DNA of 41,093 nucleotides from contig CACYCP010000042.1 in assembly GCA_902772985.1 (NCBI GenBank), forward strand, positions 1 to 41,093. Direction: 5' to 3'. The position numbers were made by a program, and so were the translations under genes. Under the pieces are notes generated by a model. That model searched no databases. It saw only the letters and a program-made list of their open reading frames with translations, and had not been told where the DNA came from. The stretch's first letter is position 1. Every line of letters begins with the position of its first letter. The DNA comes from an uncultured Bacteroidia bacterium (GTDB taxonomy: Bacteria > Bacteroidota > Bacteroidia > Bacteroidales > UBA932). Of this stretch, positions 528-27,637 are shown in pieces.

Positions 528-561
528 GGAGCGGTTCTTCATAGGGGCCGCTCCTTTTTTT
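528..561 (+). terminator. Rho-independent terminator
   Basis: A perfect 7-bp inverted repeat, GGAGCGG (528-534) and CCGCTCC (548-554), encloses a 13-base loop and is followed at once by seven T residues (555-561). It lies 22 bases after the stop of the beta-helix fragment and before the -7 box of the next gene, so it separates two transcription units. Confidence 0.88.
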
Positions 562-588
562 GCTTTCTTTTTTTAAAAGAATTATTCG

Positions 589-596
589 TAAATTTG
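589..596 (+). promoter_or_regulatory. Bacteroidota-type -7 promoter box (TAAATTTG)
   Basis: TAAATTTG matches the TAnnTTTG -7 consensus of the Bacteroidota primary sigma factor. It sits just after the terminator and 23 bases before the ATG at 620. The context ATTCGTAAATTTG closely resembles the box before the GH106-CE15 gene (ATTCGTATATTTG). No convincing -33 TTTG at normal spacing is visible. Confidence 0.65.
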
Positions 597-619
597 TAAG
601 ACATAATAACGCTGAGTTT

Positions 620-5618
<4,999 letters not shown>

Positions 5619-5622
5619 AGCC

Positions 5623-8181
5623 ATGCGTCTCCTCTTGTGTTTGGCGCTTTGGGGCTTCATTGCGTCTGCATCAGCCCAGGAGCGTTTCCCGGATGGAAAG
5701 CCGGTCCCTGCTTGGTTCGGCCAGGCAGGGAAGGCCCCCCTGGAGAGCCTTGGGCGCCGTTATGTCCTTACCGATTACGCTGTAGAAGCGAATTCCCAAA
5801 AAGTACAGACAGAAGCCATACAGAAGGTTATTGACCTGGCTGCCCGAAAAGGCGGAGTGGTGGTAGTGCCAAAAGGCGTTTTCCACAGCGGCGCCTTGTA
5901 TTTTCGTCAGGGAACCCATCTTTGGGTGGAAGGCACTTTAGTGGGCTCGGACAGGGTGAAGGACTATCCGCTTACGACAACCCGCATCGAAGGGCAGACC
6001 TGCACCTATTTCCCGGCCCTCATAAACATAGACGGGGTAGATGGCTTCGTCCTGGGCGGCCCCGGACTCATAGACGGAAACGGAACCGAGTTCTGGCGGG
6101 AAATGAAGATTCGCTGGTCCTGGAAAAAGGAGGCCGAAAACAAGGACGGACAGCGCCCAAGGCTGCTTTACATATCCAACAGCTCAAACGTTACGCTGCA
6201 GGACGTAAGGATGAAGGACAGCCCATTCTGGACCAATCATGCCTATCGCAGCCATCATCTGCGTTTCCTGGACCTTCATATCACATCCCCTTCTTCAGGC
6301 GAGGTTGTTGGTTACAGCACCGACGCCATCGACCTTGACAATTGTCACGACGTGCTGGTAAAGGGCTGTTATATGGACGTTTGCGACGACGGCGTAGTGC
6401 TTAAAGGGGGCAAGGGCACCTGGGCCGATATCGCTCCGGAAAACGGTCCTAACAACGATATCATAATAGAGGACTGCATTTTCGGGCAGACCCATGCCTG
6501 CCTTACACTTGGAAGCGAATCCATTGAAGACAGGAACATAATTTTAAGGCGCTGCGTGTCTCTGGCCTCACATAATGTCTTGCACCTGAAACTTCGTCCG
6601 GATACTCCGCAGCACTATGAATACGTGAGGGTCGAGGATATCAGCGGCCGCTGCGGGTCCATCCTGCGCATACGCCCCTGGACACAGTACTACCGTATGG
6701 AGGAGAGGGACAATATGCCGGTATCGCTTTGCAACGACATTTCGCTGCAGCGTATAAGCACAGAATGCCGTCAGCAGTTGGATGCGCAGCTGTCGGACCA
6801 ATACCAGCTGGTGAATGTCACCCTGGAAGGAAGGGATGTGGCCGATATGCTCTCCGGCAGGGAAGAGGCAGGGGAAAGCAGCGTTCCGTCTTCGCGGGAG
6901 GGAATGTTGTCGGCCCAGGAGCAGCGACTGCTGCAAAATAAGGCCCATGCGCTGGTTAATTATGACCAGTCGGCCGTTACTCCATACACTCTGGAAGACC
7001 CCCTGCGTTTTGCCGATGGAGGGCGCCTGCGCTCGAAAAAGCAGTGGCCCGCAAGGCGGAAGGAGATACTTGACATCTTTCAGCGGGAGATGTACGGCCA
7101 GATGCCGCCCCCGAGTGACATTTATTGTGAAGTCCTGGAAGAAGGGATTACGCTGGCGGGTTTTGCCCGGCGCCGGCAACTGCGAATGTGGTTCAAACCA
7201 GATCACAGCGGCCCCCATATTGACTGGCTTGAGCTTATTCCCACCCAGGTTCAGGGGCCCTGTCCGGTAATCCTTTTGCTGAACTATACCGGAAATCACG
7301 AAATACTTGAGGACAAGGAGATTATCCTGACGGAATCCTGGCTGAGGCCGGCACCGCATAAAGCCTCCAGGCGGACTGCCGGAAAATTCAACAGGGACGG
7401 AAACAATAGCGTTTTCCCCGTGAGCAGCCTTCTGGCAAGAGGCTATGCCCTTGTCACGGCCTGTTATTCCGATATTTCCCCAGACCCGGACCCGCTTGTG
7501 GAAAAGGACGGCGTCATTCTCCAGGACAGTTTTGCCTATACCGGCGTTTTCGACCTCTGGGGTCCTCGGGACCCTTCAAGGGATGATAATACAGGTTCGC
7601 TGGCAGCTTGGGCCTGGGGCTTGATGAGGGGCATGGACATGTTGGAGCAGGATCCCGCACTGGACAGTAAGCGAGTTGTGCTCACCGGTTATTCCAGGCT
7701 TGGCAAGGCGGCCCTTATTGCAGGTGCTTTCGATGAGCGTTTCCCCCTTGTGGTACCGATTCAGACCGGCGGAGGAGGCGTTCCGCTGGCGAAGCGCAAT
7801 TTCGGGGAGACAATCGCCACGGAAGTATCCTCTTTCAGGCACTGGTATTGCCGGGCCTACGACAAATATGCCTACGATACGGCTTCGATGCCTTTCGATC
7901 AGCATCTTTTGCTTGCCTGCATAGCGCCACGCGGCCTGCTTGTAGAGGGCTTCGATGAAGACTGGTTCGATACGAAGGGGGAATTCCTTGCACTTCAGGC
8001 GGCTTCTCCCGTCTGGAGCTTCCTTGGAAAGGAGGCTTTGCCCCAGGTCCCCTGGCCGGCCGATTACGAGCGCTCTGCCATAGGCAGGGACATCGGCTAT
8101 GTAAGAAGAAACCAGGGACACGGTATATCGGCCCTGGATTGGATGTGGATGCTGGATTTTGCCGAGGGACTGTTCAATTAG
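5623..8181 (+). CDS. GH28 polygalacturonase-type glycosidase fused to CE15/CE19-like esterase
   Basis: An 852-residue secreted fusion; the Sec signal ends near ASAQ (about residue 19). Residues about 45-400 are a GH28 beta-helix. The aspartates are D234 (STDAID) and D255/D256 (CDDGV), followed by H291 and K323/R325, matching the NTD, DD, GHG and RIK motifs; the histidine motif reads THA rather than GHG. Residues about 453-852 are an alpha/beta hydrolase with nucleophile elbow GYSRLGK (S691) and catalytic H833 (NQGHG). This module is homologous to the end of the GH106 protein at 15403-18816 and to glucuronoyl esterases (CE15); the pectin methylesterase family CE19 is structurally related. Inference: one polypeptide removes an ester from galacturonan and cleaves the exposed chain. 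It is last in its operon and overlaps the convergent ROK gene by 4 bases. Confidence 0.85.
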   Translation: MRLLLCLALWGFIASASAQERFPDGKPVPAWFGQAGKAPLESLGRRYVLTDYAVEANSQKVQTEAIQKVIDLAARKGGVVVVPKGVFHSGALYFRQGTHLWVEGTLVGSDRVKDYPLTTTRIEGQTCTYFPALINIDGVDGFVLGGPGLIDGNGTEFWREMKIRWSWKKEAENKDGQRPRLLYISNSSNVTLQDVRMKDSPFWTNHAYRSHHLRFLDLHITSPSSGEVVGYSTDAIDLDNCHDVLVKGCYMDVCDDGVVLKGGKGTWADIAPENGPNNDIIIEDCIFGQTHACLTLGSESIEDRNIILRRCVSLASHNVLHLKLRPDTPQHYEYVRVEDISGRCGSILRIRPWTQYYRMEERDNMPVSLCNDISLQRISTECRQQLDAQLSDQYQLVNVTLEGRDVADMLSGREEAGESSVPSSREGMLSAQEQRLLQNKAHALVNYDQSAVTPYTLEDPLRFADGGRLRSKKQWPARRKEILDIFQREMYGQMPPPSDIYCEVLEEGITLAGFARRRQLRMWFKPDHSGPHIDWLELIPTQVQGPCPVILLLNYTGNHEILEDKEIILTESWLRPAPHKASRRTAGKFNRDGNNSVFPVSSLLARGYALVTACYSDISPDPDPLVEKDGVILQDSFAYTGVFDLWGPRDPSRDDNTGSLAAWAWGLMRGMDMLEQDPALDSKRVVLTGYSRLGKAALIAGAFDERFPLVVPIQTGGGGVPLAKRNFGETIATEVSSFRHWYCRAYDKYAYDTASMPFDQHLLLACIAPRGLLVEGFDEDWFDTKGEFLALQAASPVWSFLGKEALPQVPWPADYERSAIGRDIGYVRRNQGHGISALDWMWMLDFAEGLFN

Positions 8182-12544: not shown

Positions 12545-15349
12545 TTATTTATAAAAAATATTTTCGGAACGGATAGGAGACATTCTTTCGGCGCCGGGAG
12601 CCTTCCAGAGCCATGCCAGACGCTGTCCTTCGTAGTCTTCCAGATATATGAGCCTGAAGGGGTGCAGGCCTTTTTTCAGGGGGATGCGGCCGAAGGTTGC
12701 AAGGGCCGAATGGGTGCCGTCGTTATCGACCACCAGACTGCCGTCAATCTCCAGGACGGAGCCGTCGTCACTGATTAGGCAGAAATCCCAGATGCCGTCT
12801 TCGCTGATGTCCAGATAGCCGCTGAAAATGTAGCCGAAGTGGTCTTCGTCCGGAGCCTCACGGAGAGTGGGCCTCTGCATCACTCCGCGGGCGGCAACCG
12901 GGGAGGCCAGGACATCGGCCGTCTGGGAAAAGACGCCCCTGTGATAGCTGTAGCGGCAGCCGTTTTTAAGCCCGCTCACCTTGCTGGCTTCCCTGTAATA
13001 AGCCTTCTCGGCCTGAAGGAAGGCCTCGGGCGAAGGCTGCATTCCATCCTTGAATGCCTTTGCCCTGATTGGGGCCGATTTATCCAGGTCGAAGGGCCCT
13101 TCGTAAAGCGTACTGTTTTCGCAGGGCTCACTGCCGTCAAGGGTATAGTGTATGCGGGCACCGGGGGTGCGTGAGCTCATTTCCACCTTGGCGACATCGT
13201 CAAAGAGCTCCAGATGGCCAACGATGGCGGGAGGGGAAACCATCCCTTCGGTGGTCATGGAATAGGGGGCGGGAAGGTCGTCCCTGCTGTGGTCCGGCGT
13301 GGCGGAAAGCTTGAATTCCAGGGTGCCGCCGGCCATTATTTCATCGTAGGTGACGTAATTGCGCTCAAGTTTGGAGCCGTTCAGGAGAACGTCGGAAATA
13401 TAGGGGCAGAAAGGCTTGTCGGCCTTTATCTTGAGGGTGTTTCCGTTACCCAGGGCAATGTTGGCCTCCTTGAAAAGGGGAGCTGCCAGGATGTATTCGC
13501 CGCTGCCGGGGCAGGCGGGATAGATGCCCAGGGAGGAAAGGATGTACCAGGCACTCATCTGCCCGCAGTCCTCGTTTCCGCAAACACCGTCTGGTTCGGT
13601 GCTGTACATTTCCGTGAGAAGGCGGCGCACGGTGGCCTGGCTCTTCGAAGGTTCACCCACCCAGTTGTAGATGTGGGCCATATGGTGGCTGGGTTCGTTG
13701 CCGTGGGCATATTGTCCCATAAGTCCGGTGATGTCCGAAACGTGCACGTTTTCGCTGCGTTCCTCATAGGTGAAGAGGGAATCCAGGGCGGCGACCATGT
13801 TTTCACGGCTGCCGAAGAGCATTTCCAGTCCGGCGTGGTCGTGAGGAACGAAGAAGCGGGCCTGCCAGGGAATGGCCTCGGTATAGTCCCGTGTGCTGCT
13901 GATGGGGTCGAATGGGGTCATCCAATTGCCCTTGCTGCGGCGTCCGCGCATAAAGCCAGTGGAGGGGTCGAAAACATTCCTGTAACTGGCTGCACGGGCA
14001 TAATATTCAGCCGCGATTTCCTCGTGCCCAAGGTCTTCGGCCATACGGGCTATGCACCAGTCGTCGTAGGCATATTCCAGCGTCTGGGACACCGACTGCC
14101 CTTTCATATCGGCCGGAAGATAGCCGTATTTGATATAGAGGGCCGAATTGTTGTCCTTGTTCTTGCAGGACGATTCCACCATTGCCCGGAGGGCTTCCTC
14201 CCCGTCGAAAGTGCGGATTCCGCGAAGCCAGGCATCGGCAATGACAGGGACGCTGTGATAGCCTATCATACATCCTGTTTCGCCGTGGGCGAGAGGCCAG
14301 ATGGGAAGTTCGCCCCAGCTGCGGTACATTTCCAGCATACTTTCCACCATGTCTGAGACCAGTCCGGGATTGATGATGGTCTGGAGTGGATTCCAGCTGC
14401 GGAAGGTGTCCCAGAGCGAGAGGGTGGAATATTTTACCCCGCCGGGTGTTACGTCGTCAATCCTGTTGGGCGTGACAAGGGTGTGATAGAGGCAGGTATA
14501 AAATTGCTCCACGGGGCCTCCGCTTACAATGATAGAGCCAAGGGCCGATCCCCAGTCATCCTTTGTGATTGCCAGGATCTCATCGAACCCAAGCTCTCCG
14601 GCCTCGGCAATGCGGTTTTCCTTGGCACCCTGGGCGCTGTTGAAGGAAATGCCTGCCTTCACCGTGATTTCCTTTACATCCTTGCCGAAATCCAGAAGGA
14701 GTTTTCCCTCTCCGGCATCTTCGGCGGTGAAGGGCTCAGAGAAACTGGCCGAAAGGTAGCACTCCCTGTCCGGAATCCAGCCGGTCACGACCCTTTTGCC
14801 GCACACCTCTTTGTCTGAGACGGCTTCCAGGAGGGCCGTTGTTGCCTTGCTGCCCTCGCCGATGCAATGCGTGGCATCGATAAGAATCTTGCGGGCGCCT
14901 TCGCCGGTGAAGCTGTATCTATGCAGGCCAACCCTTGGCGAGGCGGTGAGTTCCACTCTGATTCCGGAGGGAAAAACCACTTTGTAATATCCCGGGCAGG
15001 CGTTTTCGTCCGAATGGGAGAAAGCCAGGGGACCGGGGACTCCTTCGCCCAGACCTGGGGTGAAAAGGAAGTCGCCAAGGTCGGCACATCCGGTTCCGCT
15101 AAGGTGAGTGTGGCTGAAGCCAAGGATGACGGAATCGGAATAATGGTAGCCGGAGCAGCCGTCCCAGCCGTAGGTGCGGGTGTCGGGACTAAGCTGCACA
15201 AGTCCGAAAGGAGTAGTGGCTCCGGGATAGGTGTGCCCGTGGAAGTCTGTGCCGTTGAATACGTTAACGGCATCTGACGGGCTTTGATATTTTCCGTTGT
15301 AGGAAAAAAGGATTGCGATTAATGCAAAAGCAGTAAAAACTTGTTTCAT
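12545..15349 (-). CDS. GH92 alpha-mannosidase with CHB_HEX-like and PA14 C-terminal domains
   Basis: A 934-residue exported protein. The ATG at 15349 is chosen because it starts a hydrophobic signal (MKQVFTAFALIAILFSY) and sits 18 bases downstream of a -7 box; the frame stays open upstream but has no signal there. GH92 hallmarks are VNVFNGTDFHGHTYPGAT, GFSHTHLSGTGC, LWDTFRSWNPL, GNEPSHH and CGNEDCGQMSAWY, which carry calcium ligands and catalytic acids in this exo-alpha-mannosidase family. Residues about 720-780 are a chitobiase-C-terminal-like module (IHYTLDGSEP) and about 795-934 a PA14 domain (EDHFGYIFSGYLDI, SDDGSVLEIDG). The second GH92 (33288-36119) has the same layout. It heads the four-gene minus-strand operon. 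Linkage (1,2, 1,3, 1,4 or 1,6) cannot be assigned. Confidence 0.92.
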   Translation of the reverse strand: MKQVFTAFALIAILFSYNGKYQSPSDAVNVFNGTDFHGHTYPGATTPFGLVQLSPDTRTYGWDGCSGYHYSDSVILGFSHTHLSGTGCADLGDFLFTPGLGEGVPGPLAFSHSDENACPGYYKVVFPSGIRVELTASPRVGLHRYSFTGEGARKILIDATHCIGEGSKATTALLEAVSDKEVCGKRVVTGWIPDRECYLSASFSEPFTAEDAGEGKLLLDFGKDVKEITVKAGISFNSAQGAKENRIAEAGELGFDEILAITKDDWGSALGSIIVSGGPVEQFYTCLYHTLVTPNRIDDVTPGGVKYSTLSLWDTFRSWNPLQTIINPGLVSDMVESMLEMYRSWGELPIWPLAHGETGCMIGYHSVPVIADAWLRGIRTFDGEEALRAMVESSCKNKDNNSALYIKYGYLPADMKGQSVSQTLEYAYDDWCIARMAEDLGHEEIAAEYYARAASYRNVFDPSTGFMRGRRSKGNWMTPFDPISSTRDYTEAIPWQARFFVPHDHAGLEMLFGSRENMVAALDSLFTYEERSENVHVSDITGLMGQYAHGNEPSHHMAHIYNWVGEPSKSQATVRRLLTEMYSTEPDGVCGNEDCGQMSAWYILSSLGIYPACPGSGEYILAAPLFKEANIALGNGNTLKIKADKPFCPYISDVLLNGSKLERNYVTYDEIMAGGTLEFKLSATPDHSRDDLPAPYSMTTEGMVSPPAIVGHLELFDDVAKVEMSSRTPGARIHYTLDGSEPCENSTLYEGPFDLDKSAPIRAKAFKDGMQPSPEAFLQAEKAYYREASKVSGLKNGCRYSYHRGVFSQTADVLASPVAARGVMQRPTLREAPDEDHFGYIFSGYLDISEDGIWDFCLISDDGSVLEIDGSLVVDNDGTHSALATFGRIPLKKGLHPFRLIYLEDYEGQRLAWLWKAPGAERMSPIRSENIFYK

Positions 15350-15367
15350 ATCAGTCTTTGTATTTAA

Positions 15368-15375
15368 CAAAGGTA
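15368..15375 (-). promoter_or_regulatory. -7 promoter box TACCTTTG for the minus-strand GH92 operon
   Basis: Read on the minus strand, 15375 to 15368 is TACCTTTG, a full match to TAnnTTTG, ending 18 bases before the GH92 ATG. It shares a 53-base intergenic region with the plus-strand box at 15389. No good -33 TTTG is seen; upstream lies an A/T-rich tract. Confidence 0.6.
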
Positions 15376-15388
15376 CGGAAAAAATTCG

Positions 15389-15396
15389 TATATTTG
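15389..15396 (+). promoter_or_regulatory. -7 promoter box TATATTTG for the GH106-CE15 unit
   Basis: TATATTTG matches TAnnTTTG and ends 6 bases before the chosen ATG at 15403, so the transcript would be nearly leaderless. Its flank ATTCGTATATTTG is almost the same as at 584-596. It is back to back with the minus-strand box at 15375-15368, only 13 bases apart, so polymerase binding at one should hinder the other. Confidence 0.6.
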
Positions 15397-15402
15397 AACG
15401 AT

Positions 15403-18400
15403 ATGAGAAAAACGATACTTTGGTTTCTGCCAACTTTGATTTTTGCTGCCCTTTGTGGCTGTTCGGATAAGAATGACAAGGCTTCCATGTTCCGGGAGCC
15501 GCCAATGGAGTATCGGCCCTATGTCTGGTGGCATTGGATGGGGCCCAATTATTCCAAGGAAGGCATACGCAAGGACCTGGAAGCAATGAAGGAGGCAGGT
15601 ATAGGCGGCGCAACAATCTTCAACATTGCATCGGCCGTACAGGAAACCCATCATCCCATAGGGAACAACCCGTGGCCGGAACAGACCTACCGCAGCGAGG
15701 CATATTGGGAAGCCATTGCCTATGCCGCCCAGGTGGCCCGTGAACTTGGCCTTAAGATAGGGCTTCACAATTCGCCGGGATACAGCACTACCGGCGGTCC
15801 CTGGATAGACGAGGAGAAGGGGATGCAAACCCTGGTCCACAGTCAGGTAGAGCTTGTGGGCGGAGCGCCGGTGAGCGTAGTGCTTCCGCGCCCTGAACTT
15901 CCGGTGTATGGCGGCTGGGGCAATTCCGGCCGCAAGGCCACTTTCTACCGTGACGTTGCGGTGATGGCCGTTCCGGTGAAGGCAGACGCCGCTACGGAGG
16001 ATGTCCTTGAACTTTCGGCCTTGATGGACGAGGACGGACTTCTGGAATGGGACGCCCCCAAGGGGAAATGGAAAATCCTGCGCATCGGGCACGCTCCCAC
16101 CCTTTCCAATCCGCATCCGCTTCCAGACGACCTTATAGGCAAGGCTCTGGAGGCCGATAAACTCAGCGCCGAAGTGTCGGCCTATCATTGGGACAATGTG
16201 CTTGGGCCGCTGGAAGAGCACGTGGGGAGGTATTTCGGCACGTCCTTTACCCATATACTTATAGACAGCTACGAGGCCGGAGACCAGAACTGGACGCCCG
16301 GTTTCAGGGAGGATTTCAAGCGGCAGTGCGGCTACGATCCTCTTCCCCGGATAGCCCTTTTGGAAGCCGATCCTTCGAATTCCCGCAACGCCTCCTTCAA
16401 GGAAGACTGGGATATAATAATCCAGCGCTCTTTCCTTGAAAACAGTTGGCAGGTCGCCCGTGACAAAGTGCACGAAAAGGGTCTCCTGCTGTTTTGGGAG
16501 CCATATTGGGGGCCTTTCAGCATCACTGAGTCGGTTTATGTGCCGGACCTTCCCATGGGCGAATTCTGGACCCACAGCGACGGACGCATAAGCAGTGCGA
16601 TCGTGGACAAGGCAAAGGAATATGGCAAGAATCTGGTTGGGGCAGAGGCCTTTACCGGCTGGCCTACCAACAGCCATTATACGGAGGATCCCGCTTTCCT
16701 GAAGCGTTCGGCCGACGGTGCCTTCGTCTCAGGGGTGAACCTGCTTTTCCTGCATCACTGGGTGCACCAGCCTTTCGACGACCGCTACCAGCCCGGCATG
16801 GGAATGGGTTGGTGGGGAACGCATTTCTCGCGTCACCAGACCTGGTTCGAGCCCGGCAAAGAATTCTTCACCTACCTTTCCCGCTGCCAGATGATGCTTC
16901 GGGAAGGAACTCTTGAGGAGCGCGGTGAAAACTGGATTCACAGAAAAAGCGGAAAGGCCGATATCTATTTTGTCGTAAACCAGGAGGACAAACCCCGAAG
17001 AACCAGTCTTCCCGCCGGGGAGTTCCCCGCTGAAATATGGGACCCTTACACCGCCGGCATTTCCCTGGCTCAGCCCGGGGATTCCGTAAATCTGGTCCTG
17101 GAGCCCGGTCAGTCGTTGTTTGTGGTGCTGCCTAAGGAAAAGACGAATTATGCCAAGCCTTACCAGCCATTCTCTCCCATGGTGAAATGGCGCAGCCTTG
17201 GGAAAATATGGAATGTGGATTTCAGCCCCAAGCTGGACGAGCCATTCAGCATCAAGGACTTCGAACTTGAGGACTTTAGCAAATGCGATGAGGAGCGTTT
17301 GAAATATTTCTCCGGCACTGCCAGCTACTGCTCAAGTTTCACACTTGCGCCTGAAGAACTAAAGGGCCGTCTGGAAATAGACCTTGGCAAGATGAATGAC
17401 ATCGCCCGTCTTTTCATAAACGGACGCCTTGTGGCAACGCTCTGGTACCCTCCTTTCAAAGCCGATGTCAGCGATTTTGTCAAGGCAGGAGAAAACAGCA
17501 TAAGGATAGAAGTTACCAACAACTGGGCGAACCGGCTTATTGGCGACGAGCAGCATGAGCCCGATTTCGAATGGGGACAGGACCGCGGAGAGGATTTCGG
17601 CCGGGCAATGAAAGCTTTCCCGGACTGGTTCCTGAAAGGGGAGCCCCGCCCCTCGGCCGGCCGCAAGGGCTTTGTCATCTGGTCCTATTTCCGCAAGGAT
17701 TCCCCGCTTCAGGAAGCAGGACTTGTGGGGCCGGTGAAACTCTATTTCTGCGGAAACGAATATCTGCCGGACCCCCTTGTTAAAAATGACGGAAAGAAGG
17801 TGAAGGACGCCGCCGAGTGGGAAACCGTCAGGCGGGGCGAGATACTGGAGATGTTCTCCAGTGAAATGTACGGGCACGTTCCCGCCAAGCCGGAGGGCCT
17901 CCATTTCCAGACGCTCTCGGAAGAAAGCGTGTATGACGGACTTGGAATTCGGAAAATCGTCAGGGTTTACCTGGACCGGGCGGGGGAGCACAGTTTTGAC
18001 ATCCTGCTGCATCTTCCTGCCGAGGCAAAGGCTCCGGTGCCTGTTTTTGCCGGACTCAATTTCAAGAGCAACGAAGCCACCCTGGATGAAAGGGCCAATT
18101 ACCGATGGCCCTATGAATTGGTTCTCCGTGCCGGAATGGGCGTCGCTACCGCCTGGCGTGATTCCATCCAGCCCGATGTGGTGGATGCACAGGGAGGAGT
18201 CCGCAGCTGGTACAACCTTGGAGGCGACTGGGGGACCATATCGGCCTGGGCCTGGGGGCTTAGCCGCATTATGGATTATCTGGAGACCGATCCTGCCGTA
18301 GATGCTTCCCGCGTTGCGGTGATAGGCCATTCGCGCCTTGGAAAAACCGCCCTCTGGGCAGGAGCGAACGACCTCCGTTTCCGTGCCGTTATCTCCAATA

Positions 18401-18816
18401 ATTCCGGCTGCTGCGGTGCGGCCATATCCCGCCGCAGGCACGGGGAGACCTTTAAAGCCATTGACAATTCTTTTCCGCACTGGTTCACCCGGGAATTCGA
18501 CAAGTATAAAGATGCGGATGACAGTTTCCCGGGAGACCAGCACTGGCTGTGCGCCCTTGCGGCGCCTCGTCCGCTGTATGTTGCCAGCGCTACGGAAGAC
18601 GACTGGGCCGACCCTGTAGGGGAATGGTTTTCGGCCCGTTCGGCTGCTCCGGTTTACGGGCTTTACGGGCTGGAGGGAGTCGGCCCTGAATATCCTGCGC
18701 CGGACAGTCCTGATGCCGGAAATACCGTGGCTTATCACGTCCGCACCGGACTTCATGGAATCTTTGCCTATGACTGGGCCCAGTATGTGCGGTGGTTTGA
18801 AAAAAATACAAAATGA
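15403..18816 (+). CDS. GH106 alpha-L-rhamnosidase-type glycosidase fused to CE15 glucuronoyl-esterase-type domain
   Basis: A 1137-residue lipoprotein. The ATG at 15403 gives a signal ending CGC (Cys about 17-19); the longer TTG frame from 15358 adds only non-signal residues. Residues about 25-785 are GH106-like: the YRPYVWWHWMGPNYSKEGI opening, GLHNSPGYSTTGGPW, the DSYEAGDQNWTPGF region, and a galactose-binding-like sandwich before the fusion point (LFINGRLVATLWYPPFKADV). Residues about 786-1137 are CE15-like, starting LPDPLVKNDGKKV, with nucleophile S977 in GHSRLGKTALW, the SNNSGCCGAA segment and H1118 (GLHG). It should remove alpha-L-rhamnose and cut an ester on an adjacent uronic acid, consistent with rhamnogalacturonan or decorated side chains. 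It is first in a unit with GH127 6 bases downstream. GH106 enzymes are usually about 1000 residues or more, so the GH106 part is short. Confidence 0.86.
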   Translation: MRKTILWFLPTLIFAALCGCSDKNDKASMFREPPMEYRPYVWWHWMGPNYSKEGIRKDLEAMKEAGIGGATIFNIASAVQETHHPIGNNPWPEQTYRSEAYWEAIAYAAQVARELGLKIGLHNSPGYSTTGGPWIDEEKGMQTLVHSQVELVGGAPVSVVLPRPELPVYGGWGNSGRKATFYRDVAVMAVPVKADAATEDVLELSALMDEDGLLEWDAPKGKWKILRIGHAPTLSNPHPLPDDLIGKALEADKLSAEVSAYHWDNVLGPLEEHVGRYFGTSFTHILIDSYEAGDQNWTPGFREDFKRQCGYDPLPRIALLEADPSNSRNASFKEDWDIIIQRSFLENSWQVARDKVHEKGLLLFWEPYWGPFSITESVYVPDLPMGEFWTHSDGRISSAIVDKAKEYGKNLVGAEAFTGWPTNSHYTEDPAFLKRSADGAFVSGVNLLFLHHWVHQPFDDRYQPGMGMGWWGTHFSRHQTWFEPGKEFFTYLSRCQMMLREGTLEERGENWIHRKSGKADIYFVVNQEDKPRRTSLPAGEFPAEIWDPYTAGISLAQPGDSVNLVLEPGQSLFVVLPKEKTNYAKPYQPFSPMVKWRSLGKIWNVDFSPKLDEPFSIKDFELEDFSKCDEERLKYFSGTASYCSSFTLAPEELKGRLEIDLGKMNDIARLFINGRLVATLWYPPFKADVSDFVKAGENSIRIEVTNNWANRLIGDEQHEPDFEWGQDRGEDFGRAMKAFPDWFLKGEPRPSAGRKGFVIWSYFRKDSPLQEAGLVGPVKLYFCGNEYLPDPLVKNDGKKVKDAAEWETVRRGEILEMFSSEMYGHVPAKPEGLHFQTLSEESVYDGLGIRKIVRVYLDRAGEHSFDILLHLPAEAKAPVPVFAGLNFKSNEATLDERANYRWPYELVLRAGMGVATAWRDSIQPDVVDAQGGVRSWYNLGGDWGTISAWAWGLSRIMDYLETDPAVDASRVAVIGHSRLGKTALWAGANDLRFRAVISNNSGCCGAAISRRRHGETFKAIDNSFPHWFTREFDKYKDADDSFPGDQHWLCALAAPRPLYVASATEDDWADPVGEWFSARSAAPVYGLYGLEGVGPEYPAPDSPDAGNTVAYHVRTGLHGIFAYDWAQYVRWFEKNTK

Positions 18817-23230: not shown

Positions 23231-23242
23231 TTTGAAATATTG

Positions 23243-26200
23243 ATGAGAAGAGTAGTATTTGCATTGGCGGCAATCCTGCTGGCGGAATGCCGGCAAACAG
23301 CCGTTACCCCCGAAAACACCGCAGTGTGGACTCCGCCGCAGGAGGAAATCCTTGCCGCTCCACAAACCCTTGGTTGCGCCCAGGCCACATCGGCCCCCAA
23401 TCAATGGATTGCTTTCCGTAAGGATGTAAAACTGGATGCCGTGCCAGGCTCGGCCCTTGCACGAATTGCCGTGGACAGTAAGTACTGGCTGTGGGTGAAC
23501 GGGGAGCCGGTGATTTTTGAAGGAGGCCTGAAACGCGGCCCTAATCCCGGCGACAGCTATTTTGACGCTGTTGAACTGGCCCCTTACCTGAAGGCGGGGG
23601 AGAACCGCATTGCACTGCTTCTCTGGTATTTCGGCAAGGATGGTTTTTCGCATCTGAGCAGTGGTACGCCGCAGCTTTGGTTCGACTGTCCGGCCCTTGG
23701 AGAAGGAGGATGGCTTTGCCGTGTACATCCTGCTTACGGAACGGCAAGCGAACTCCCGGCTCCGAATTACCGCCTTCCGGAATCCAGCATTGCTTTCGAT
23801 GCCAGGGCCGATATCGGCTTCTGGCAGGACGGCAGTCTTGAGGGCTTTGCTCCGGCCGTTACATTGGAGGGCAGCCTGGGCGCCTTGCACATCCGTCCCA
23901 TTCCGCAGTGGAAAGACTTCGGCATTAAGGAGGTAGCCTTTGAAACTCACCCTGGTCCTGCGGCCGATACCCTTGTAGCCATTCTTCCGCACAATATGCA
24001 GATGACGCCGATTTTGTCGGTAGAAGACCCCGACGGCGGGCATCATATTATTATTGAAACCGACCACGCCAAAGTAGGGGAGCAGTGCCTGAGGGCATCA
24101 TATACCACCAAGGCCGGCGCACAGGAGTACGAGTCCCTGGGCTGGCTTAGCGGACAAAAGATTATCCTTACCGTAGAGCATGGAGCCCGGGTTACTGGCC
24201 TGAAATACAGGGAAACCGGTTATGACACCGCCCCGGAAGGAAGGTTCAGTTGCTCCGATCCTTTCTTCAACCGCTTCTGGGAGAAGGGCTTACGCACAAT
24301 ATACGTCAATTCCCGTGACAGTTTCTTCGATTGTCCGGATCGTGAGCGCGCCCAGTGGTGGGGAGACATTGTTACCATTCTGGGGGAGAGTTTCTATACC
24401 TACACACCCTCTTTGCATGGACTTATCCGCAAGGGAATCCGCGAACTGGTTGACTGGCAGCGCCCGGATGACATCCTTTTTTCGCCCATTCCCGGCAATT
24501 ATGGCGTTGAACTGCCCTGTCAGATGCTGGCTGCCGTAGGCCGTTATGGCATCTGGACTTATTACATGAATACCGGTGACGTGGAGACCATACGCTATGC
24601 CTTCCCCAAGATCAAGAAGTATCTGGATACTTATCATATCGGCCCTGACGGACTGCTGGAGTGGCACAACGGTGACTGGAACTGGGGCGACTGGGGGGGC
24701 AATCGTGATATGCGCCTGCTGCAGAACCTTTGGTATGTGCTTGCCCTTCAAGCCCTTTCCGATATGGCCGACATCGTTGGAGAGGAAGGTGAGGGCGGCG
24801 CCATCTGGGACCGGATGACTTCGCTTCGAAAAGCCGTCAACCAGGTTTGCTGGAATGGCAGTTGTTACAGGCATCCCGGCTACGATGGGGAAACCGACGA
24901 CCGGGTGCAGGCCCTTGCAGTGCTTTCCGGTACGGCAAGCCGGGAAAAGTATGACGCCATTTTCGAGGTCCTGAAAACCCAGGAACACGCCAGTCCTTAT
25001 ATGGAAAAATATGTAATGGAAGCGTTGTTCGCGATTGGCCATGGCGACTATGCCCTGGAACGTGAGCGCCGCCGCTACGAATTCATGGTTAACCATCCTT
25101 TCCACGATACTCTCTTCGAAAACTGGAACGTGGGTGTGGACGGAGACTGGGACTGCGGCAGCGTGAACCACGCCTGGAGCGGCGGCCCCCTGGCCGTTTT
25201 CCCCACCAGGATGTTCGGCGCAGTGCCAACCGAGCCGGGCTGGAAAGCTTTCTCTGTGAGACTTGATCCGAATATTTTCCCTTCCTGCAGCCTTTCTTTC
25301 CCCACGGTGGCCGGATCAGTGTCGCTCGCTTACGATGCCAAAGCCGCCACTTTGGAAGTGCAGGTTCCAAAGGGCTCATCGGCCAATGTGGATATTCCTT
25401 GGGTGGCGAAAAATTATACCCTGGGGCCCGGAAAGCACAAGTTGGAATTTGGAAAAAAGGATTCTGCCAAGGGGGCATATCTTTACCAGGACCCTTCCCA
25501 GCCGGTGGAAAAGAGGGTCAAGGATTTGATGAAAAGGATGAGCCTGGAAGAAAAAACGGCCCAGCTGACGGCCCAGCTGCTGTTTATGGATAATTATTAT
25601 GCCGAGCGGAATTATAATGCCGGACATATCAGAAATGTAGGGCACTTCCTTCCGGACGGAGGTCTTCGGAACGATCCCGCTACGGTTGCCCAGCGTATCA
25701 ATGACGATACCCGCCGCTCCATAGAGGCCAGCCGATGGGGCATTCCTGTCCTTCAGCACGGTGAGGCGCTGCACGGTGCCCAGTGGGGTAATGCCACCTG
25801 TTTTCCGCAGAGCATAGGCATGGCTGCGACCTTCGATGAAAATCTGTATTACCAGGTGGGACAGGTCGTGGCAGAGGAACTTCGGGCCGTAGGCGTAAGG
25901 CAGGTCTATGCGCCGGTGATTAACATCACCCGTGACCAGCGCTGGGGCCGCGGCCAGGAAAGCTACGGCGAGGACGTGCTGCTGAACTCCCGTATGGGTG
26001 TTGCCTATGTCAAGGCCCTGGAAGAGGGCGGCGTGGTGGCCACTCCCAAGCATTTCGTGGACAATTACGGAGAGGGCGGCCACGATTCCTTTGCCTCCAT
26101 CACATCCTGGCGGGAGCTCCGGGAAGTATATCTGGAGCCGTTCCGTGCCTGTGTTCAGGAGGGCGGAGCCAGAGGAATAATGAGCGCCTACAATTCTGTG

Positions 26201-27637
26201 GACGGCATTCCTGCCAGTTGCAGCAAAGTGCTGCTAAGGGACATTCTCAAAGATGAATGGGGCTTCAAGGGAATAGTGGTTTCGGATTACGGTGCAGTGG
26301 AAATCGTAAACAATCACCACCGTCTTACCGAAAACGAGGAGGAGGCGCTGGCCTTATGCATCAATAACGGTTTGGATTTGCAGCTTGCAAATACCAACAG
26401 CAAAATACAGATGCTCGTCGAAGATGGAAGCATAGACCGCAAGGCACTTGACCAGGCTGTGGAGCGCGTTCTCAGGATTAAGTTTGAACTTGGCCTTTTT
26501 GACCAGCCTTATGCCGATCCGGAAAAGGCCGCGGCCCTGGTGCGCAGCGATGCCCACAGGGAATTGGCCTATGAAGCGGCCTGCAAGTCTATGACTCTCC
26601 TTAAGAACAATGGTATCCTGCCGCTAAAACCGGGTTCGGTACGCCGGATTGGACTTTTCGGCCCTGCTGCCAATATGCTGAACCTGGGCGATTACAGCGG
26701 AGGCCGGGGCGGATGGAAAGGAGAAGGCGGAATTACTCCCTACCAAGGGCTGAAGAAAGCTTTCGAGGGAAAGGGAGAGGTCCTGCTGAATCCCGATCCA
26801 AAAAGTTGCGACGTGCTGCTGTTCTTCCCCACTATCACCGAGGAAGAAGGCCAGGACCGCAGCAGTTTCGCCCTGCCATCGGCTCACGAAACCCGCTATG
26901 TGGAATCTTCCGGCGGTCTTATCGTTGCCGGTATCAGCGAGAGGGTTATAGAGGTGGACCAGGAAAAGATGGTGCGCGATCTTATTGCAACGGGAAAGCC
27001 GGTGGTGGCCGTGCTTCATAACGGTGCCGTAATCGATATCTCCGGCTGGGTTGACGATGCTGCTGCCGTTCTGGAGGCTTGGTATTCCGGAGAACAGGGT
27101 GGCCGCGCCATTGCCGATATTCTTACGGGAGAGCGCAACCCTGGAGGACGTCTCCCCATGAGCTGGGTGCGGAACATCGGCCAGAATCCTTATTACTATT
27201 CCATCAAGCCCAGCGGCCGCGGTTACGGATATGTCGAGAATGACGGTTCCCCGCTCTTCCCCTTTGGCTTCGGGCTAAGTTATACTACCTTTGAATACAG
27301 TGACTTCCGGCTGCCAGATCAGTTGGAGGCGGGAGAAAGCCTGAAAGTGAAAGTGACGCTTACCAATACCGGCTCCGTCTCCGGCGACGAGGTGGTCCAG
27401 CTTTATGCGCATGACGAGGTCGCTTCGGTAGTGCGCCCCATGAAGGAACTGGTGGCCTTCACGCGTGTTACACTTGCTCCCGGAGAGTCCCGGGAAGTGG
27501 AACTGGAAGTGCCCTACAGGCGTTTTGCCCTTTGGGATGCCAATATGGTGCAGCGCATGGAAGAAGGCTGGTTCTCGCTATGGCTTGGGCGTGATGCTTC
27601 CACCAAAATCATCGGCGGAAGGGTTTATGTGAAATAA
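23243..27637 (+). CDS. GH78-like alpha-L-rhamnosidase fused to GH3 glycosidase
   Basis: A 1464-residue protein from the ATG at 23243; a TTG just before it is less likely. The N-terminus MRRVVFALAAILLAEC is signal-like with a possible lipidated Cys. Residues about 30-350 are beta-sandwich domains of the GH78 type (YWLWVNGEPVIFEGG). The (alpha/alpha)6 barrel follows with DCPDRERAQWWGD (363-375) and E626 in DTLFENW, then NHAWSGGP. Without a break the chain continues at about 748 with YLYQDPSQPVEKRVKDLMKR, a standard GH3 start. D1015 (VVSDYG) is the GH3 nucleophile, the acid/base is probably in EEEGQDR, and a fibronectin-III-like domain (TNTGSVSGDEVVQLYAHD) ends it. Both catalytic modules look complete. 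Expected action: release of alpha-L-rhamnose plus a beta-linked sugar next to it, on one oligosaccharide. Confidence 0.86.
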   Translation: MRRVVFALAAILLAECRQTAVTPENTAVWTPPQEEILAAPQTLGCAQATSAPNQWIAFRKDVKLDAVPGSALARIAVDSKYWLWVNGEPVIFEGGLKRGPNPGDSYFDAVELAPYLKAGENRIALLLWYFGKDGFSHLSSGTPQLWFDCPALGEGGWLCRVHPAYGTASELPAPNYRLPESSIAFDARADIGFWQDGSLEGFAPAVTLEGSLGALHIRPIPQWKDFGIKEVAFETHPGPAADTLVAILPHNMQMTPILSVEDPDGGHHIIIETDHAKVGEQCLRASYTTKAGAQEYESLGWLSGQKIILTVEHGARVTGLKYRETGYDTAPEGRFSCSDPFFNRFWEKGLRTIYVNSRDSFFDCPDRERAQWWGDIVTILGESFYTYTPSLHGLIRKGIRELVDWQRPDDILFSPIPGNYGVELPCQMLAAVGRYGIWTYYMNTGDVETIRYAFPKIKKYLDTYHIGPDGLLEWHNGDWNWGDWGGNRDMRLLQNLWYVLALQALSDMADIVGEEGEGGAIWDRMTSLRKAVNQVCWNGSCYRHPGYDGETDDRVQALAVLSGTASREKYDAIFEVLKTQEHASPYMEKYVMEALFAIGHGDYALERERRRYEFMVNHPFHDTLFENWNVGVDGDWDCGSVNHAWSGGPLAVFPTRMFGAVPTEPGWKAFSVRLDPNIFPSCSLSFPTVAGSVSLAYDAKAATLEVQVPKGSSANVDIPWVAKNYTLGPGKHKLEFGKKDSAKGAYLYQDPSQPVEKRVKDLMKRMSLEEKTAQLTAQLLFMDNYYAERNYNAGHIRNVGHFLPDGGLRNDPATVAQRINDDTRRSIEASRWGIPVLQHGEALHGAQWGNATCFPQSIGMAATFDENLYYQVGQVVAEELRAVGVRQVYAPVINITRDQRWGRGQESYGEDVLLNSRMGVAYVKALEEGGVVATPKHFVDNYGEGGHDSFASITSWRELREVYLEPFRACVQEGGARGIMSAYNSVDGIPASCSKVLLRDILKDEWGFKGIVVSDYGAVEIVNNHHRLTENEEEALALCINNGLDLQLANTNSKIQMLVEDGSIDRKALDQAVERVLRIKFELGLFDQPYADPEKAAALVRSDAHRELAYEAACKSMTLLKNNGILPLKPGSVRRIGLFGPAANMLNLGDYSGGRGGWKGEGGITPYQGLKKAFEGKGEVLLNPDPKSCDVLLFFPTITEEEGQDRSSFALPSAHETRYVESSGGLIVAGISERVIEVDQEKMVRDLIATGKPVVAVLHNGAVIDISGWVDDAAAVLEAWYSGEQGGRAIADILTGERNPGGRLPMSWVRNIGQNPYYYSIKPSGRGYGYVENDGSPLFPFGFGLSYTTFEYSDFRLPDQLEAGESLKVKVTLTNTGSVSGDEVVQLYAHDEVASVVRPMKELVAFTRVTLAPGESREVELEVPYRRFALWDANMVQRMEEGWFSLWLGRDASTKIIGGRVYVK

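What the first reader, a model, noticed from the sequence alone, without database searches (positions are those of the whole stretch)
5623..8181. GH28 fused to a CE15/CE19-like esterase
GH28 catalytic aspartates (D234, D255, D256) and an SxR-type serine hydrolase (S691, H833) share one polypeptide. CE15 enzymes cut glucuronoyl esters, while the structurally related CE19 founder is a pectin methylesterase. Next to GH28, methyl-ester removal from galacturonan is the simplest idea: demethylate, then cleave. The elbow GYSRLGK differs from the GHSRLGK of the second CE module, and the GH28 histidine motif is THA rather than GHG, so specificity may be new.
Basis: partly seen in the sequence, partly recalled or inferred. 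Interest (0 to 1): 0.7.

Follow-up and report, generated by a model that had tools for sequence, protein, structure and literature searches.

The report
Pectin-cutting enzyme fused to uronate esterase
A gut bacterium makes one protein that joins an enzyme resembling those that trim the rhamnogalacturonan part of pectin to an esterase from an untested-looking branch of the glucuronoyl esterases, a pairing that appears to have arisen at least twice and hints that this esterase works on pectin.

Summary
In detail: ORF 5623-8181 (852 aa) carries a GH28 half and a serine-esterase half with the named residues in place. The interpretation needs correction. The esterase is CE15 by sequence and predicted fold; CE19 is not matched. 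The GH28 half is nearest the BT4153-type rhamnogalacturonidases (545 bits, under the 650 cut-off), far above two polygalacturonase models (97 and 95). THA is ordinary variation. Homogalacturonan demethylation is disfavoured: published CE15 enzymes assayed for pectin methylesterase activity had none.

New here: 21 of the 80 CE15 relatives kept from a genome-collection scan carry the same fusion. Both domain trees reject one fused clade (p-AU 1e-11 and 0.001), so the pairing probably arose at least twice. This CE15 clade has Gln at the fungal-type acid position (84 of 84) and an acid at the bacterial-type position in only 20 of 84, against 11 of 11 distant CE15s, so its catalytic acid has probably moved. 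The window also holds a GH106-CE15 fusion. Best reading: a secreted exo-enzyme that de-esterifies a terminal uronate on rhamnogalacturonan fragments and removes GalA. No activity was tested.

The parts
5623..8181 (+). Whole gene, 852 aa, GH28-CE15 fusion
5623..5679 (+). Probable Sec signal peptide, residues 1-19 (hydrophobic stretch ending ASAQ, no lipobox), judged by eye
   Evidence: sequence; no predictor was run
5680..6849 (+). GH28 beta-helix domain, residues about 20-409, BT4153-like
   Evidence: NCBIfam NF049899 545.4 bits over residues 6-407; strand pattern; Foldseek rows 3JUR and 5OLP
6322..6324 (+). D234 of the GH28 motif (STDAID)
   Evidence: D in 19 of 19 fused rows of A2
6385..6390 (+). 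D255-D256 of the GH28 motif (CDDG)
   Evidence: DD in 19 of 19 fused rows of A2
6493..6495 (+). H291 of the GH28 histidine motif (THA)
6850..6957 (+). Inter-domain linker, residues about 410-445, partly of low confidence
   Evidence: pLDDT under 50 at 413-424
6958..8169 (+). CE15 alpha/beta-hydrolase domain, residues about 446-849
7693..7698 (+). S691 (nucleophile) and R692 (oxyanion arginine) in GYSRLGK
   Evidence: S 84/84 and R 84/84 in the clade
7762..7764 (+). Q714, where OtCE15A has E290 and fungal enzymes their catalytic Glu
   Evidence: Q in 84/84; register counted from the alignment
7945..7965 (+). Shortened acid loop E775 G F D778 E D W781; candidate catalytic acids E775 and D778
8119..8121 (+). 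H833, catalytic histidine
   Evidence: H in 82 of 82 rows with a letter there, 2 gaps
15403..18816 (+). GH106-CE15 fusion from its likely ATG, with a lipoprotein-type signal (LCGC, by eye); its CE15 belongs to another CE15 branch with the usual motifs

Best explanation
The protein is a secreted two-enzyme machine for rhamnogalacturonan fragments. The GH28 half is most likely an exo-acting rhamnogalacturonan galacturonohydrolase of the BT4153 type that takes GalA off the non-reducing end. The CE15 half, from a branch that looks uncharacterised, most likely hydrolyses an ester on a terminal uronate (GalA at the chain end, or a GlcA side group) that would otherwise block that trimming. The GH106-CE15 fusion in the same window would fit the alternate step, removal of the terminal rhamnose. 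Shown by computation: the domain assignments, the conserved active-site residues apart from an unplaced catalytic acid, and the recurrence of the fusion in at least two clades. Inferred: substrate, terminal action, order of steps, secretion.
For: GH28 nearest to BT4153 rhamnogalacturonidase: 545 bits against 51-97 for the four other GH28 models listed; 10 of 10 fusions scanned give 476-551 bits; of 10 stand-alone relatives scanned, 7 pass the 650 cut-off, among them L015 and L016, which join the window's fused clade in the tree. A review names BT4153 as a GH28 rhamnogalacturonidase that acts with a GH106 in RG-I breakdown (PMC8002723 passages). CE15: PDB sequence matches at E about 1e-72; Foldseek TM 0.85-0.92 by target length to the OtCE15A, MZ0003, PvCE15 and SuCE15C entries. 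Recurrent fusion in 21 of 80 loci; one fused clade rejected in the CE15 tree (p-AU 1.0e-11) and the GH28 tree (p-AU 0.001). In 4 of 59 stand-alone loci a GH28 relative lies in the flank, in L094, L136 and L137 directly before the CE15 gene. Terminal rather than main-chain uronate: structural argument and negative assays in PMC10807430. OtCE15C, a CE15-GH106 fusion, cleaves MeGlcA and MeGalA alike (PMC6069808 table). Own genome has one GH28, this one, and no hit for GH88/105, RGI_lyase PF18370 or CE8, which fits an exo-hydrolytic route. Beside fused loci, GH78-type rhamnosidase domains in 6, GH3 in 7 and GH43 in 3 of 60 ORFs.
Against: No activity was measured. The GH28 of the window and of 10 of 10 scanned fusions falls under the BT4153 cut-off of 650. 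Neighbours of stand-alone CE15s of the clade are not clearly pectin-related: GH28 in 3 and altronate dehydratase in 2 of 90 ORFs scanned. In L014 (599 aa) the GH28 half has shrunk and lost its catalytic region while the CE15 keeps its motifs, so the two are not strictly bound together. L066 has a histidine-phosphatase-like half instead of GH28 (Pfam E only 0.25). The window's GH106 matches the RG-I-specific BT4145 model weakly (157 bits, cut-off 1300). The genome is 88% complete, so the absences are weak evidence. The catalytic acid could not be placed.
Confidence: 0.5

Rival explanations
1. One reading: the CE15 half is a pectin methylesterase that demethylates galacturonan and the GH28 half is a polygalacturonase that then cuts it.
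For: GH28 includes polygalacturonases; the own genome has no CE8 pectinesterase hit, so another enzyme would have to demethylate; the CE15 clade looks untested.
Against: The GH28 is far closer to BT4153; CE15 enzymes active on MeGalA gave no methanol from pectin (PMC6069808 passages) and PvCE15 no pectin methylesterase activity (PMC10807430).
Confidence: 0.1
2. The CE15 half cuts (4-O-methyl)glucuronoyl esters (to lignin, methyl or other alcohols) on side chains or on other polysaccharides, and the fusion only keeps two cell-wall activities together.
For: All ten bacterial CE15 enzymes in the table of PMC6069808 act on GlcA esters. Residues that bind GlcA in PvCE15 (Lys268, Glu302, Trp355) correspond by spacing to K695, E729 and W781, kept in 84, 83 and 84 of 84. 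CE15 modules in genomes of the same genus are also fused to GH43 and fucosidase-family domains.
Against: The same partner subfamily appears fused in two separate GH28 clades, which speaks for a more specific tie.
Confidence: 0.27
3. The CE15 clade has changed chemistry, for example a rhamnogalacturonan acetylesterase, or is a weak or dead esterase, because the usual catalytic acids are mostly gone.
For: Q714 in 84 of 84 and an acid at W-2 in only 20 of 84; 6 of 84 lack an acid at both 775 and 778. The best fold match MZ0003 is titled a promiscuous CE15 esterase.
Against: Ser, Arg and Lys are invariant in 84 of 84, His in 82 of 82 rows with a letter, and 78 of 84 keep an acid at 775 or 778.
Confidence: 0.13

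Closest known systems
BT4153, GH28 rhamnogalacturonidase of the B. thetaiotaomicron RG-I pathway (NCBIfam NF049899)
   Same: Best family match of the GH28 half, profile positions 6-409 of 432
   Different: Fused to CE15; 545 bits, under the 650 cut-off; the last part of the profile is not matched
OtCE15A, MZ0003, PvCE15, SuCE15C (bacterial CE15 enzymes with solved structures)
   Same: Fold, SRLGK elbow, and by spacing the Arg, Lys, Glu, Trp and His of the active site
   Different: 33-38% identity in the fold matches; loop before the Trp one residue shorter, no Asp at W-2 (E779 in the window, mostly no acid in the clade), Q714 at the E290 position, F782 where these have a small residue
OtCE15C, a CE15-GH106 fusion (PMC10807430)
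   Same: CE15 joined to a pectin-related glycoside hydrolase family; the window's second fusion pairs the same two families
   Different: Partner GH106, not GH28; OtCE15C's sequence was not compared here
BT1017, CE19 pectin methylesterase (PMC7939467 passages)
   Same: Serine esterase; its catalytic module is also reported in association with GH28 in some proteins
   Different: GxSxGG elbow, Zn site; 6GOC not matched by sequence
BeCE15A-Rex8A, a CE15-GH8 enzyme (PMC8417218 passages)
   Same: Two-enzyme CE15 fusion of a gut Bacteroides
   Different: Xylan partner; CE15 nearer the fungal type, with Glu253

Membership tests
CE15 | Sequence match to CE15 proteins over the domain | tested here: met
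   phmmer 6ehn E 4.5e-73, 6syu 1.9e-72, 8q6s 9.5e-68; PF22244 117.3 bits
CE15 | CE15 alpha/beta-hydrolase fold | tested here: met
   Model pLDDT 87.2; Foldseek TM by target 0.85-0.92 to OtCE15A, MZ0003, PvCE15, SuCE15C entries
CE15 | Ser and Arg of GxSRxGK, and His | tested here: met
   S691, R692, H833; 84/84, 84/84 and 82/82 in the clade
CE15 | Acid of the triad at the fungal-type (S+23) or bacterial-type (W-2) position | tested here: inconclusive
   S+23 is Q714 (Q 84/84); W-2 is E779 in the window and an acid in 20/84; alternatives D778 (58/84) and E775 (58/84); no coordinates to measure distances
CE15 | Uronoyl esterase activity | not testable with these tools
   needs an assay
CE19 | Sequence match to BT1017 (6GOC) | tested here: not met
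   6GOC absent from the 41 PDB sequences matched at E up to 10; not among the 50 Foldseek rows shown of 1141
CE19 | GxSxGG elbow | tested here: not met
   GYSRLGK; BT1017 motif from PMC7939467
GH28 | Pfam GH28 and three Asp | tested here: met
   PF00295 63.2 bits, cut-off 22.9; D234, D255, D256, 19/19 in the fused rows of A2
BT4153 rhamnogalacturonidase (NF049899) | Equivalog cut-off of 650 bits | tested here: not met
   545.4 bits; so it is called BT4153-like, not a member
BT4153 rhamnogalacturonidase (NF049899) | Groups with stand-alone proteins that pass the cut-off | tested here: met
   Nine fused rows joined by L015 (731 bits) and L016 (695 bits), support 95/99
Pectin methylesterase (function) | Methanol release from methyl-galacturonan | not testable with these tools
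   Published CE15 enzymes assayed were negative

The most novel reading that the evidence does not exclude
This CE15 branch is a dedicated rhamnogalacturonan uronoyl esterase with a relocated catalytic acid, which frees the ester-capped terminal GalA that appears each time rhamnose is removed. Its repeated fusion to exo-rhamnogalacturonidases would mean that esterified GalA in RG-I is a regular obstacle in plant feed, and would give the missing substrate for the CE15 enzymes found in pectin loci.
Probability: 0.27. Interest if true: 0.66.

Novelty: new variant of a known kind. Interest (0 to 1): 0.46.

Why it matters
What CE15 enzymes do in pectin loci is an open question in print: PMC10807430 proposes uronate esters in rhamnogalacturonans without a proven substrate. 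A fusion to a BT4153-like GH28 that seems to have arisen at least twice ties a CE15 branch to a specific kind of linkage and gives a directly testable enzyme pair. The branch also departs from both known positions of the triad acid, so a structure would show how the family tolerates that.

Tried and rejected
CE19 membership: rejected. THA as a new motif: rejected. One fused clade: rejected by both trees, although one ancestral fusion followed by many separations is not formally excluded. Fusion as an assembly error: rejected. Neighbourhood test of stand-alone CE15s: gave little. A structural check of which acid meets H833: not possible, no coordinates are laid in the box. L131 looked like a 1112-aa fusion, but its first about 670 residues look like a spurious frame (by eye). 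Paper searches for the fusion: six spellings of GH28-CE15 and GH106-CE15 in either order, 0 papers; CE15, GH28, fusion and rumen together, 0 papers; CE15, rhamnogalacturonan, GH106 and GH28 together, 3 papers, all on fungi by title, not read; CE15, glucuronoyl esterase, GH28 and CE19, at least three of them, 21 papers, of which I read passages of one, PMC7939467. So 'not described' holds only for this open-access library and these terms.

Rows left out and biases: the 80 loci are the best of 211 by likeness to the window's module, so they fall in its clade by selection, and near-copies count more than once in the k of 84 figures. Alignment A2 used the window, 18 of 21 fused proteins (the 3 open ones left out) and 15 of 59 stand-alone loci. 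Neighbour scans used 60 of 68 ORFs (fused loci) and 90 of 304 (stand-alone loci), picked by eye to drop cut, doubtful or near-duplicate ones. The CE15 tree (95 rows) holds the 80 loci, both window modules and 13 loci of the genome search; L007, L008, L012, L043, L048 and L052 were not added, and L004, L005 and L006 are present as L069, L114 and L117. L014 counts there as 'alone', since its shrunken GH28 half gave no hit. In the GH28 tree L006 and L117 are the same protein, so the clade of 14 fused rows has 13 different ones. The order-wide scan scored at most two candidates per genome.

Full report
What is there. The frame 5623-8181 on the + strand encodes 852 residues. Pfam gives GH28 and the glucuronoyl esterase family PF22244, both over cut-off. 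The N-terminus looks like a Sec signal without a lipobox (by eye). The AlphaFold model has mean pLDDT 87.2 and pTM 0.57, so the domains are mostly confident and their mutual placement is not.

The GH28 half. Against NCBIfam it scores 545 bits with the BT4153 rhamnogalacturonidase model, 97 and 95 with two polygalacturonase models, 91 with BT4155 and 51 with BT4146. The BT4153 cut-off is 650, so it is BT4153-like, not a called member. Its match ends at profile position 409 of 432. Ten other fusions give 476-551 bits, none over the cut-off. Of ten stand-alone relatives scanned, seven pass 650 (670-780 bits) and three do not (544-623); L015 and L016, which join the window's fused clade in the tree, pass. 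A review lists BT4153 as one of three GH28 rhamnogalacturonidases acting with the GH106 BT4145 in RG-I breakdown (PMC8002723, passages). Foldseek's best GH28 structures are 3JUR, titled an exopolygalacturonase, and 5OLP, titled a galacturonidase. The three Asp are kept in 19 of 19 fused rows of A2. THA is ordinary variation: most stand-alone relatives read VHG, CHG, CHS, AHS or SHG around the same His, and three of the same genus have no His there. A second class of fusions has the His two residues earlier, in GHG (9 rows), or a Tyr there (2 rows), of 19.

The esterase half. Its best PDB sequences are CE15 enzymes: MZ0003, OtCE15A, PvCE15 and SuCE15C; the CE19 entry 6GOC is not matched at E up to 10. 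The fold search agrees. In a tree of 95 CE15 domains the window's module lies in a group of 84 rows parted from 11 ordinary CE15s by a branch with support 100/100; the window's GH106-linked CE15 lies with the 11. The 84 rows differ in motifs: elbow GxSRL with x = Y 38, S 24, C 18, F 3, A 1, never H; Q at the position of OtCE15A E290 in 84 of 84; an acid at W-2, the position of OtCE15A D356, in 20 of 84, against 11 of 11 ordinary CE15s (two of which lack the W). The loop is one residue shorter, so the register is uncertain. An acid stands at 778 in 58 of 84 and at 775 in 58 of 84; 78 of 84 have at least one, 6 have neither. The register of E290 and D356 was counted from S267 in the alignment and agrees with the numbering S264, D353, W355 given for PvCE15. 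PMC6069808 says that all but three of its bacterial enzymes have a small residue and an Asp at these positions and that the three keep the fungal residue pattern there (passage), so none of that set appears to share this clade's pattern; this is an inference, their sequences were not compared. My reading is that the acid has shifted to D778 or E775; without coordinates it is not shown.

The fusion recurs. The one scan of genome contigs found 211 relatives and kept the best 80. Many record titles name rumen, other ruminant gut sites or horse faeces; most are Bacteroidales or Bacteroidia, some Kiritimatiellota, Lentisphaerota and Verrucomicrobiota. In 21 of 80 GH28 and CE15 share a frame. In the GH28 tree of 53 rows the fused ones form two clades, of 9 and 14 rows, with stand-alone proteins between; holding them together is rejected (p-AU 0.001). 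In the CE15 tree holding the 22 fused rows together is rejected (p-AU 1.0e-11). So at least two fusions, or one with many separations. In 4 of the 59 stand-alone loci (L094, L103, L136, L137) a GH28 relative lies in the flank, in three directly before the CE15 gene. In an order-wide sample of 393 genomes, 65 with a match at E 1e-30, only the window's own frame is listed with both halves; most other matches lie in frames of stand-alone length, three in frames over 900 aa (G058, G167, G247), of which only G058 was looked at and shows a GH28 match without CE15.

Surroundings. The window holds GH2 with a ricin-type domain, GH106-CE15, GH127, GH78-GH3, two GH43, two GH92, GH3 and others, a set that would suit pectin side chains and other glycans. 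The own genome (88% complete, 1.8 Mb) has this one GH28, three GH106 proteins, two SusD hits, and no hit for GH88/105, RGI_lyase or CE8. Absence in an incomplete genome is weak evidence. Of 60 ORFs beside fused loci, 6 hold GH78-type rhamnosidase, 7 GH3 and 3 GH43 domains. Of 90 ORFs beside stand-alone members, 6 hold GFO/IDH/MocA oxidoreductase, 4 GH31, 3 GH28 and 2 altronate dehydratase domains; this neither supports nor excludes a pectin role for the whole clade.

Organism. Three contigs of genomes in the window's genus have the same lengths as named records: G012:C19 and JAGHSA010000006 (Candidatus Cryptobacteroides onthequi, 30074), G033:C1 and CACZCQ010000001 (296249), G011:C82 and CACZEU010000082 (7869). 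So the window most likely comes from Cryptobacteroides, order Bacteroidales; inferred from lengths.

Function. PMC10807430 (abstract, passages, the structure section and the discussion) studied CE15 enzymes from loci thought to target pectin. PvCE15 was not a pectin methylesterase, the pocket seems to fit only terminal or branching uronates, and the authors suggest uronate esters of rhamnogalacturonans. PMC6069808 (passages) reports no methanol from pectin for its CE15 enzymes most active on MeGalA. An exo-acting GH28 partner would fit terminal action, since trimming makes each backbone GalA terminal in turn (inference). This is why I prefer de-esterification of a terminal uronate and release of GalA over the demethylate-then-cleave idea. 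The GH106-CE15 fusion would fit the rhamnose step, but its GH106 matches the RG-I model BT4145 only weakly, so its substrate is open.

Verdict. A real fusion of two known enzyme families, not found in the papers searched, with an unusual CE15 branch. Moderately interesting and directly testable.

Noticed in passing
L066:3558-6266: The same CE15 clade, beside L093 in the tree, with a half that looks like a histidine acid phosphatase (RHGSR motif by eye, Pfam His_Phos_2 only E 0.25) in place of GH28.
   Followed up: partly
L014:304-2103 (also L057): A 599-aa relative whose GH28 half has shrunk and lost its catalytic region while the CE15 half keeps its motifs.
   Followed up: partly
L046:6018-8858, L048:3645-7283, L051:2441-4492, L054:2248-4329: CE15 modules of genomes in the same genus fused to GH43, to an alpha-L-fucosidase-family domain and to DUF4886.
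   Followed up: no
window 23240-27637: One frame of 1465 aa joins a GH78-type rhamnosidase and a GH3.
   Followed up: no
window 12545-15616 and 15358-18816: The listed ORFs overlap only because of upstream TTG starts; likely ATG starts are about 15349 (GH92, - strand) and 15403 (GH106-CE15, + strand), so the genes are divergent.
   Followed up: yes
L113, L115, L116, L128, L130, L132, L134, L135, L138-L141: The CE15 clade reaches records titled Kiritimatiellae, Lentisphaeria and Verrucomicrobia, which suggests transfer between phyla or an old shared origin.
   Followed up: no
L010, L011, L013: Stand-alone BT4153-like GH28 of the same genus with GPGS in place of the His motif.
   Followed up: no
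window 560-2143, 12545-15616, 33288-36119, 36167-38854: PA14 domains near the C-terminus of four enzymes of the window, perhaps a shared carbohydrate-binding or anchoring tail.
   Followed up: no
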